The notes beneath the pieces are model-generated. The model was not told where the DNA came from. It saw only the letters and a program-made list of their open reading frames with translations, and searched no databases. Shown piece by piece: positions 1,190-2,943 of a DNA stretch of 64,000 nucleotides (within the stretch, counting starts at the first letter, position 1; each line of letters begins with the position of its first letter). A program made the position numbers and the translations under genes. The DNA is from Microbacterium paraoxydans (GTDB taxonomy: Bacteria; Actinomycetota; Actinomycetes; Actinomycetales; Microbacteriaceae), in assembly GCF_900105335.1 (NCBI RefSeq), contig NZ_LT629770.1, positions 434,001 through 498,000 on the forward strand, read 5' to 3'.

Positions 1190-2239
1190 TCAGTCCACGA
1201 CCCTCCGCCGAATCCGCGGACCGAGGCGGGTGAGGATCTCCTCGCCCACCGTATCGATCCGCTCGGCGAGGGTCGTTGCTGTCTCCTCCCCCTGTGCGCC
1301 GGGGCCGAAGATCGTCACCTCGTCGCCGACCGCCATCCCCGGCCAGCCTTCGACCGTCATCGTGGCGACATCGATGGTCGACACGGCACGCGAGCCGGCG
1401 GGGGTGCCCACCGTCATCCCGGTCAGCGTGGAGGGGACGCCGTCCAGGCTCCCGACGGCGACGATCGCGTTCTCGCCCTCCACCCGCACGACCGGCGCGA
1501 CGAGACGCGCCGCGGGACGGATCCCGTCGAGGTCCGGGCCGTCCGCCGAGCGGATGCCGTAGCAGAACGCGCCGATCCGCGACACGGTCCCGCGCAGCTC
1601 GGGTCGCCACCAGGACGCGGCCGAGGCCGTGAGGTGCACAGACGCCGGCTGCGGCCCGGTCAGGCCGGCCTGCCGGACGGCGTCGAGGAACACGGCCTGC
1701 GCCTCGTCGTCCTCGGCATCGCTCGCCTCGGCGATGTGGCTCCAGACGCCGACGAGCGCGAGGGCGCCGGACCGCTCGGCGTCCCGGGCATCGGCGACCG
1801 CGGCCGCCCAGTCCTCCGGGCGCACGCCGTTGCGGTGCAGCCCGGTGTCGATCTTGAGGTGGATCCGTGCGCGCACGCCGAGGACCTCCGCCCGGGCGGC
1901 GATGCGCCGGAGATATTCGACCGTGCCGACGCCGAGCTCGATGTCCTGCAGGAGCGCCTCGTCGATCTCCTCATCTGTCGAGGTCGCCCAGGCGAACACC
2001 GTCACCTCTCCGCCCGCGATGCGCCGGACCTCGACGCCTCCGCGCACGTCATAGCTGCCGAACGACGTCACCCCGGCCTCGAGGCCCGTCTCGACCGCCC
2101 AGCGGAGCCCGTGGCCGTAGGCATCGTCCTTGAGGACCAGCATCAGCGTGGAGTCGCCGAGGCGGTCACGGACCGCCGCGATGTTCGCGCGGAAGACGGC
2201 GCTGTCCAGACGCAGTTCGGGGCGCATCGGGCCTCCCAT
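1190..2239 (-). CDS. Alanine racemase-like protein, PLP-lysine half of a two-gene pair
   Basis: Fold-type III PLP protein of the alanine racemase family, about 349 residues. The PLP lysine is present (K37 in VLKDDAYGHG), as are the His of WSHIAEA and the phosphate-contacting Arg of SRIGAFCYG. The catalytic tyrosine motif VSYG (Tyr265 of Geobacillus Alr) is absent: after the barrel the sequence reads VAVGSLDGVPSTL. The IGYADGY motif is also missing. The start region holds four in-frame ATGs (2251, 2242, 2239, 2227); those at 2242 and 2239 overlap the TGA of the upstream gene, implying translational coupling. With the partner gene it may form a heteromeric enzyme; a non-catalytic or altered-specificity role is also possible. 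Confidence 0.8.
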   Translation of the reverse strand: MGGPMRPELRLDSAVFRANIAAVRDRLGDSTLMLVLKDDAYGHGLRWAVETGLEAGVTSFGSYDVRGGVEVRRIAGGEVTVFAWATSTDEEIDEALLQDIELGVGTVEYLRRIAARAEVLGVRARIHLKIDTGLHRNGVRPEDWAAAVADARDAERSGALALVGVWSHIAEASDAEDDEAQAVFLDAVRQAGLTGPQPASVHLTASAASWWRPELRGTVSRIGAFCYGIRSADGPDLDGIRPAARLVAPVVRVEGENAIVAVGSLDGVPSTLTGMTVGTPAGSRAVSTIDVATMTVEGWPGMAVGDEVTIFGPGAQGEETATTLAERIDTVGEEILTRLGPRIRRRVVD

Positions 2240-2943
2240 CATGCCTCCCATCCGCGCACGGCGTGCGCTCCCGGGACCGCGACGAGCTCAGCCGGGGTCA
2301 TCCGAGTGAGCTCCGCCCAGCGCGCGATGGCGCCGGAGGCGGGTCCGGTCCCTCCGAAGTAGGTCACCGCGTCGCCGACCTCCGCGGGAGCCCCCTGGAG
2401 GTCGATGACGCAGACGTCCATCGCGACACGCCCGACGATGGGGTGCAGCGCGCCGTCGATCTCCACGTCCGCGTGGTTGCCCAGGGCCCGGACGATGCCC
2501 TGAGCGTAGCCGCCCGTCACGAGCGCGACCGTGGTGTCCGCCGCCGCCCGGAAGGTGTAGCCGTACGAGACGGCCTCTCCCGCCCGCAGGCGCTTGGTGG
2601 ACATGACACGGCCGACCAGGCGCATGACCGGAGGCGTCGTCGGGAGGCCCTCCGCGGACGGCAGCCCGTAGAGGAGAGCGGGATCGACGTCCGGCTCTCC
2701 GGTGATCGTGGCGGTGATGCCTTCGAGACGGAGCGCCTCGACCTCTCCGGGGGAGTCGACGAGGACCTCCTCCGCTCCTGCCGCGGTCACCGCCTGGGCG
2801 ACGGCGAGCAGACCGTGACCCCACGCATCGCGCCGCAAGTCGGCCCGGCGACCTCCCGCCTGGATCGCCGCGGACGCGCCGGCAGCGAGGGCCGAACGCG
2901 AGATCATCGCCTGCGGAAGCGCACTCGAACTCGTGTCACACAC
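2239..2943 (-). CDS. Alanine racemase C-terminal domain protein, tyrosine half of the pair
   Basis: 234-residue protein holding the C-terminal beta domain of alanine racemase. It has the catalytic-Tyr motif GEAVSYGYTF (Y127), GGYAQG in place of IGYADG, and IVGRVAMDVCVID. Only about 60 residues of barrel survive, and the PLP-lysine motif is degenerate: DLRRDAWGHG has Arg where Lys39 should be. It therefore cannot bind PLP as a Schiff base alone. It is the first gene of a two-gene operon and overlaps the lysine-bearing homologue by ATGA. The GTG start at 2943 lies 7 nt after a TAGGCT hexamer, suggesting a leaderless message; ATG 2907 is an alternative. Confidence 0.8.
   Translation of the reverse strand: MCDTSSSALPQAMISRSALAAGASAAIQAGGRRADLRRDAWGHGLLAVAQAVTAAGAEEVLVDSPGEVEALRLEGITATITGEPDVDPALLYGLPSAEGLPTTPPVMRLVGRVMSTKRLRAGEAVSYGYTFRAAADTTVALVTGGYAQGIVRALGNHADVEIDGALHPIVGRVAMDVCVIDLQGAPAEVGDAVTYFGGTGPASGAIARWAELTRMTPAELVAVPGAHAVRGWEA

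What the first reader, a model, noticed from the sequence alone, without database searches (positions are those of the whole stretch)
1190..2943. Split alanine racemase: Lys and Tyr catalytic residues on two coupled genes
In ordinary alanine racemase homodimers each active site uses Lys39 of one subunit and Tyr265 of the other. Here the upstream gene (2239-2943) keeps the VSYG tyrosine but has Arg for the lysine and little barrel. The ATGA-coupled downstream gene keeps the PLP lysine but has no VSYG or IGYADGY. The losses are complementary, so an obligate heterodimer with one working site is possible. I do not know of a described enzyme of this kind.
Basis: partly seen in the sequence, partly recalled or inferred. 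Interest (0 to 1): 0.75.

Follow-up and report, generated by a model that had tools for sequence, protein, structure and literature searches.

The report
Two-gene racemase sharing one active site
Two overlapping bacterial genes appear to encode the two halves of one amino-acid racemase, each having lost exactly the catalytic residue that the other keeps, and they sit beside cell-wall ligase genes, which suggests that they make the unusual D-amino acid of this family's cell wall.

Summary
The upstream gene ('up', 2239-2943, minus) keeps the Tyr265-type C-terminal domain of alanine racemase but has a truncated barrel and Arg for Lys39. The ATGA-overlapping downstream gene ('dn', 1190-2242, minus) keeps the PLP barrel and Lys39 but lacks the Tyr265 segment.

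Of 35 same-genus genomes 28 hold both genes, 7 neither, none one alone. In 114 split pairs (113 Microbacteriaceae genomes, 29 genera) no up copy has Lys39 and all have Tyr265. In 116 split-type dn copies Lys39 is always kept, Tyr265 always lost, and Tyr354 always Glu or Asp. Three genomes carry both halves as one open frame. Eight other genera hold two complete racemases in tandem, the downstream one already with Asp/Glu354; a barrel tree rejects a single origin of the split.

Best reading: an obligate heterodimer with one composite site. The heterodimer is strongly supported but unassayed. Its substrate, a cationic amino acid such as ornithine for group B peptidoglycan, is inferred from residue 354, the neighbouring ligases and known wall chemistry. 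My searches showed no such enzyme in print.

The parts
2239..2943 (-). up subunit, 234 aa: C-terminal racemase domain with the second catalytic base, truncated barrel; stop codon included
1190..2242 (-). dn subunit, 350 aa: PLP barrel and reduced C-terminal domain; stop codon included; earlier ATG at 2251 possible
2239..2242 (-). ATGA overlap of the two genes (translational coupling); RTGA overlap in 26 of 28 genus pairs
2833..2835 (-). up R37, the place of catalytic Lys39
2563..2565 (-). up Y127, catalytic Tyr265 type (VSYG)
2129..2131 (-). dn K38, the PLP lysine (Lys39 type)
1241..1243 (-). dn E334, the place of the specificity residue Tyr354
   Evidence: role of Tyr354 from passages of PMC3485190
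3028..4044 (+). ATP-grasp protein (PF14397), part of the neighbouring ligase module
4143..4838 (-). CofE-like protein (PF01996, below the NCBIfam CofE cut-offs), part of the ligase module

Best explanation
The two coupled genes encode the two subunits of an obligate heterodimeric racemase of the alanine-racemase fold (PLP fold type III). Dn supplies the PLP lysine and the barrel pocket. Up supplies the second catalytic base (Tyr265 type) and the lid residues (Tyr284, Arg290, Arg309, Met312, Asp313 types) from its C-terminal domain. Only one of the two sites of the ordinary homodimer survives; the other would consist of an eroded barrel and a C-domain without the tyrosine. SHOWN: reciprocal residue loss, co-occurrence, gene overlap, fusions, purifying selection, complete tandem paralogues in other genera. 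INFERRED: physical heterodimer and racemase activity. INFERRED, less certain: the substrate is a cationic amino acid, L-ornithine to D-ornithine in most Microbacterium and a relative (diaminobutyrate or lysine) elsewhere in the family, which the neighbouring ligases build into the group B peptidoglycan cross-bridge.
For: Lys39 absent from 114 of 114 up copies and Tyr265 present in 114; Lys39, Tyr43, Arg136, His166, Ser204, Arg219 present in 116 of 116 split-type dn copies, Tyr265 absent from 116. 28 both, 7 neither, 0 one alone in 35 genus genomes. Overlap of start and stop. Three one-frame fusions in two genera. omega 0.07-0.37 in both genes for 13 pairs of genomes. Both chains fold as racemase domains. 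Substrate: Glu 72/Asp 44 at the Tyr354 place of dn, a place that sets alanine specificity and is Thr or Ala in lysine-preferring racemases (passages of PMC3485190); charged residues there lowered alanine racemisation in another Alr (passages of PMC4517790). Ligase modules beside the pair and a GatD-like partner without catalytic Cys in 37 of 37 loci. Microbacterium walls carry D-ornithine, L-lysine or diaminobutyrate; M. galbinum and M. sufflavum, stated as D-ornithine (passages of PMC10757982), have the pair (L086, L072).
Against: No complex was modelled and nothing was assayed. Dn keeps a C-terminal domain and could still form homodimers. In up Asp313 is Asn in 12 of 114, Arg309 is lost in 5, Tyr284 is Phe in 7. 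The 7 complete tandem pairs looked at are not beside the ligase island, and the loci L126, L129 and L134 show no island genes within the DNA held.
Confidence: 0.72

Rival explanations
1. Same heterodimer, other substrate: it racemises alanine, serine or another small amino acid as an accessory wall enzyme.
For: Best sequence and structure matches are alanine racemases.
Against: Two further complete alr genes in the genome; Tyr354 replaced by an acid in 116 of 116; charged residues at that place lowered alanine activity in another Alr (passages).
Confidence: 0.15
2. Each half pairs with the housekeeping Alr rather than with the other half, giving mixed dimers that tune its activity or specificity.
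For: Up and dn are both homologous to Alr, which is present in the genome; in trees the complete upstream tandem copies group with canonical Alr.
Against: Strict co-occurrence of the halves, their overlap, and fusion of up to dn, not to Alr.
Confidence: 0.07
3. A PLP-binding complex that is no racemase, for example a decarboxylase or regulator of the alanine-racemase fold.
For: One tyrosine of the gate is changed; the enzyme is untested.
Against: Both acid-base residues and all barrel pocket residues checked are kept across the two chains.
Confidence: 0.05
4. Decaying duplicate of alr without function.
For: Each gene lacks a catalytic residue.
Against: Kept in 28 of 35 genus genomes and found in 29 genera, omega 0.07-0.37, invariant site residues.
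Confidence: 0.01

Closest known systems
Alanine racemase Alr (PF01168 + PF00842, TIGR00492)
   Same: Fold, PLP pocket, two-base chemistry across a dimer interface (mechanism from passages of PMC3485190)
   Different: Two genes, Lys39 and Tyr265 on different chains only, one site, acid at Tyr354, below the TIGR00492 cut-off (111.2 and 100.6 against 168 bits)
Lysine-preferring and broad-specificity racemases (Lyr, Bar)
   Same: Gate tyrosine of Alr (Tyr354) absent (passages)
   Different: Those are homodimers with Thr or Ala at that place; here Glu or Asp, and a heterodimer is inferred
Trypanosome AdoMet decarboxylase with prozyme, and deoxyhypusine synthase with its dead paralogue
   Same: Enzyme that needs a catalytically dead paralogue (abstracts PMC6221367, PMC5201418, PMC3663545, listing)
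   Different: Other folds, and the active partner there keeps the catalytic residues; here the residues of one reaction are divided between the chains
MurT-GatD lipid II amidotransferase (neighbour genes in other genomes)
   Same: Homology of both subunits to the S. aureus proteins
   Different: GatD-like protein has Gly, Ala, Ser or Thr for catalytic Cys94 in 37 of 37 loci

Membership tests
Alanine racemase (Alr) | PLP lysine (Lys39) in the barrel | tested here: met
   dn only, 116 of 116; up 0 of 114
Alanine racemase (Alr) | Catalytic Tyr265 in the C-terminal domain | tested here: met
   up only, 114 of 114; dn 0 of 116
Alanine racemase (Alr) | Both catalytic residues in one chain (homodimer) | tested here: not met
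Alanine racemase (Alr) | Gate tyrosine Tyr354 | tested here: not met
   Glu 72, Asp 44 of 116 split-type dn copies
Alanine racemase (Alr) | Score over the TIGR00492 cut-off (168 bits) | tested here: not met
   111.2 (dn) and 100.6 (up) bits
Alanine racemase (Alr) | Racemisation of alanine | not testable with these tools
   needs protein
Lysine/broad-specificity racemase | Small residue (Thr, Ala) at the Tyr354 place | tested here: not met
   Glu or Asp (Lyr and Bar residues from passages)
D-diamino-acid racemase of group B peptidoglycan (proposed) | Activity on ornithine, diaminobutyrate or lysine; presence follows the wall's D-diamino acid | not testable with these tools

The most novel reading that the evidence does not exclude
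A dedicated heterodimeric D-diamino-acid racemase of group B peptidoglycan. A tandem of two Alr paralogues, the second already changed at the substrate gate, was turned at least twice independently into an obligate one-site heterodimer by reciprocal loss of Lys39 and Tyr265 and erosion of one barrel, and was in places fused again into one chain. It works with a ligase module, either a MurT with a Cys-less GatD or a CofE-like protein with an ATP-grasp protein, that attaches the D-diamino acid to the stem D-Glu. In genomes without a D-diamino-acid bridge the pair is gone and ATP-grasp ligases take its place.
Probability: 0.5. Interest if true: 0.88.

Novelty: new variant of a known kind. Interest (0 to 1): 0.8.

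Why it matters
It would be a bacterial PLP racemase in which the two acid-base residues of one reaction lie on two genes: a clear natural case of a homodimer turned into an obligate heterodimer after duplication, with the complete tandem state, long-barrel intermediates and fused forms all available for comparison. It would also give a directly testable source for the D-ornithine or D-diaminobutyrate of group B cell walls, a trait long used in taxonomy for which the listings showed me no enzyme.

Tried and rejected
Rejected: pseudogene or frameshift (conservation in 29 genera and purifying selection). Rejected: one alr cut in two by an assembly error (a C-domain is present in each gene). Thought unlikely: D-Ala supply, since two further complete alr genes are present (one of them, L002, has His at the Tyr354 place).

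A heterodimer model was not tried: the structure tool takes one chain read unchanged from DNA, and the two genes are in different frames.

Corrections on the way: the dn of G004 was read in a wrong frame (corrected). In one search, where sequences were cut to 400 residues, one up row (G142) shows Lys in the Lys39 column and five complete dn rows show gaps there; the realignment gives Gly and Lys. The Lys39 column of up copies with a short or divergent N-terminus is uncertain. The label 'PPS' was a guess and is wrong: that gene is a PAC2-family protein. 'parE' and 'parC' there are type IIA topoisomerase subunits B and A.

Full report
WHAT IS THERE. The window lies at C1:434001-498000 of a one-contig 3.55-Mb genome. 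Of the 80 nearest named loci for the up gene 78 are titled Microbacterium. On the minus strand two genes overlap by ATGA. Up (2239-2943, 234 aa) is an alanine-racemase C-terminal domain behind about 80 residues that resemble the start of the barrel. Dn (start most likely 2242, stop codon ending at 1190, 350 aa) is a whole barrel with a reduced C-domain. Aligned to canonical racemases, up has Arg for Lys39 and keeps Tyr265, Tyr284, Arg290, Arg309, Met312 and Asp313; dn keeps Lys39, Tyr43, Arg136, His166, Ser204 and Arg219 and has lost the segment with Tyr265. Residue numbers are those of Geobacillus Alr. It missed that Tyr354 of dn is Glu. The genome has two further complete alr genes, L001 and L002, the latter with His at 354.

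STRUCTURE. Single-chain AlphaFold2 models are confident (up pLDDT 89.2, pTM 0.85; dn 93.9 and 0.91). The best Foldseek matches in the PDB are alanine racemases for both (TM by query length up to 0.82 for up and 0.92 for dn among the rows shown). No complex was modelled.

THE GENUS. Of 58 genomes searched, 35 are of the genus. Of these 28 hold both genes, 7 (G008, G012, G013, G015, G018, G025, G031, all 99-100% complete) have only matches at the level of canonical alr, and none holds one gene alone. All 28 pairs are adjacent on one strand; 26 overlap as ATGA or GTGA, G004 has TGATG and G030 a start 10 bases before the stop. In all 28 the residues are divided as in the window. Three more genus genomes (G502, G536, G606) had no dn-type hit in the order search. 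Of the 80 named loci (the best 80 of 419) 78 gave a placed dn start, 72 of them at the -1 overlap; in L121 the contig ends before dn and in L119 no start was placed.

THE FAMILY. A search of 299 Microbacteriaceae genomes with a diverse dn alignment at E <= 1e-110 gave 114 genomes. On that model 57 split dn sequences score 417-492 bits and four canonical racemases 220-350. I classified the DNA at these 114, at the 26 other genus pairs, at four split genomes of the order search and at G302 (seen): 145 genomes (loci; classification). 113 genomes have split pairs (G281 has two), 28 have two complete racemases in tandem, 2 have a split-type dn at a contig end with no DNA upstream (G180, G312), 2 have a single racemase with Tyr354 (G198, G296). 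Within the 114 this makes 83, 27, 2 and 2. The other 185 of the 299 had no hit at that threshold and were not looked into. Split pairs come from 29 genera, complete tandems from 8 others, without overlap.

RECIPROCAL LOSS. In 114 up copies the Lys39 column is Arg 72, Ala 12, Ser 9, Asp 7, Thr 6, Gly 5, Pro 1, His 1, gap 1, never Lys. Tyr265 is kept in 114, Arg290 in 114, Met312 in 114, Arg309 in 109; Tyr284 is Tyr in 107 and Phe in 7; Asp313 is Asp in 102 and Asn in 12. In 116 split-type dn copies Lys39, Tyr43, Arg136, His166, Ser204 and Arg219 are kept in 116; the Tyr265 column is a gap in 113, Gly in 2, Ala in 1; Tyr354 is Glu in 72 and Asp in 44. In four genomes of genus g79 (L157, L158, L159, L162) up still has a long barrel (343-344 aa) with Asp for Lys39 and without His166: a halfway state. 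Both genes evolve under purifying selection: omega 0.07-0.37 in 13 pairs of genomes, the window with L067 and the first 12 of the named loci that passed a divergence filter.

FUSIONS. In G290 (genus g95) up, a linker of about 58 residues and dn lie in one open frame of 832 codons; in G299 (g106) a long-barrel up and dn lie in one of 766 codons. The segment count adds G339 (g106), not read letter by letter. A base error could fuse overlapping genes, but it does not explain an added linker.

ORIGIN. In the 28 complete tandems the upstream copy has Tyr354 (27) or Trp (1), the downstream copy Asp (22) or Glu (6); both keep Lys39 and Tyr265. In a barrel tree of 77 rows the 50 dn-type copies are one side of a branch (SH-aLRT 97), and complete and split dn are mixed; holding the 38 split dn together is rejected (p-AU 0.0004), in a quick tree with long branches. 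A C-domain tree of 127 columns, poorly resolved, places the 38 split up copies in two groups of 22 and 16. The gate change thus seems older than the split, and the reciprocal loss happened at least twice, which suggests that the tandem proteins already paired. In 297 genomes of the order no genome of another family scored above 350.4 bits, which is the canonical range.

NEIGHBOURS. In the regions examined split pairs lie, as a rule, between the primary sigma-factor gene and type IIA topoisomerase genes (gene identities). Two ligase modules alternate there: CofE-like with ATP-grasp, as in the window, or MurT-like with GatD-like (Pfam; PDB matches). Among the 80 named loci, within the DNA held, 61 show CofE with ATP-grasp, 1 CofE alone, 14 MurT with GatD, 3 ATP-grasp alone, 1 none; none shows both modules. 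In the genus 22 of the 28 pair genomes have the CofE-like gene and the other 6 have MurT-like and GatD-like genes. The GatD-like proteins have Gly, Ala, Ser or Thr at the place of catalytic Cys94 in 37 of 37 loci, some from the same genome (catalytic residues from passages of PMC5871853). In 14 genomes tested for the MurT C-domain 8 have one match and 6 none. The 7 pair-less genomes all keep the CofE-like gene; in 6 of them one or two ATP-grasp genes lie in the island where the pair would be, and in G012 two lie elsewhere. Of 9 split loci looked at in other genera, all 9 have the island; of 7 complete tandems, none.

HOW IT MOST LIKELY WORKS. One heterodimer, one site: dn holds PLP on Lys38, up closes the site with Tyr127. 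In ordinary Alr, Tyr265' and Tyr354 stand about 2.7 A apart and hold the site to alanine; lysine racemase and Bar have Thr and Ala for the second Tyr (passages of PMC3485190). In another Alr, charged residues at that place lowered alanine racemisation (passages of PMC4517790). Glu or Asp would widen the pocket and offer a charge to a cationic side chain. Microbacterium walls contain D-ornithine, L-lysine or diaminobutyrate by species; M. galbinum and M. sufflavum, stated as D-ornithine (passages of PMC10757982), have the pair (L086, L072). Against this stands a report of L-ornithine in one Microbacterium wall (passages of PMC10978784). That the group B bridge starts at the D-Glu alpha-carboxyl, the group MurT activates, is recalled. 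A ligase with a dead glutaminase half that takes a D-diamino acid instead of ammonia would fit. This part is inference.

KNOWN OR NOT. 'Alanine racemase' with 'heterodimer' (52 papers, 20 listed), with 'Microbacteriaceae' (2 papers), with pseudoenzyme terms (11 papers), and Microbacterium with ornithine racemase (0) showed no such enzyme in titles and abstracts. The library holds open-licence PMC papers only, so a description elsewhere is possible.

Noticed in passing
37 loci, e.g. L178, L182, L245-L250, L387-L391: GatD-like partners of MurT lack the catalytic Cys; the MurT neighbours of two complete-tandem genomes (L396, L399) read the same way by eye. Perhaps a family-wide ligase that does not use glutamine ammonia.
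   Followed up: partly
G008, G013, G015 (L237, L239, L238): Two ATP-grasp genes in tandem occupy the island where other genomes hold the racemase pair.
   Followed up: partly
L002 (G000:C1:2322632-2326273): A second complete alr gene, with His at the Tyr354 place, followed by what reads like a D-Ala-D-X ligase (recalled resemblance, no family search).
   Followed up: no
L072 and L126 (M. sufflavum), L136 and L137 (M. stercoris), L302 (G281): Two copies of the pair in one genome.
   Followed up: no
G106, G175, G230, G279, G321 (genus code g71): All five genomes of this genus gave no match to the up alignment at E <= 1e-28, though canonical alr reaches that level in 288 of 299 family genomes.
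   Followed up: no
split dn copies by genus: Residue 354 is Glu in some genera and Asp in others; this might follow the length of the diamino acid, but the genera are unnamed.
   Followed up: no
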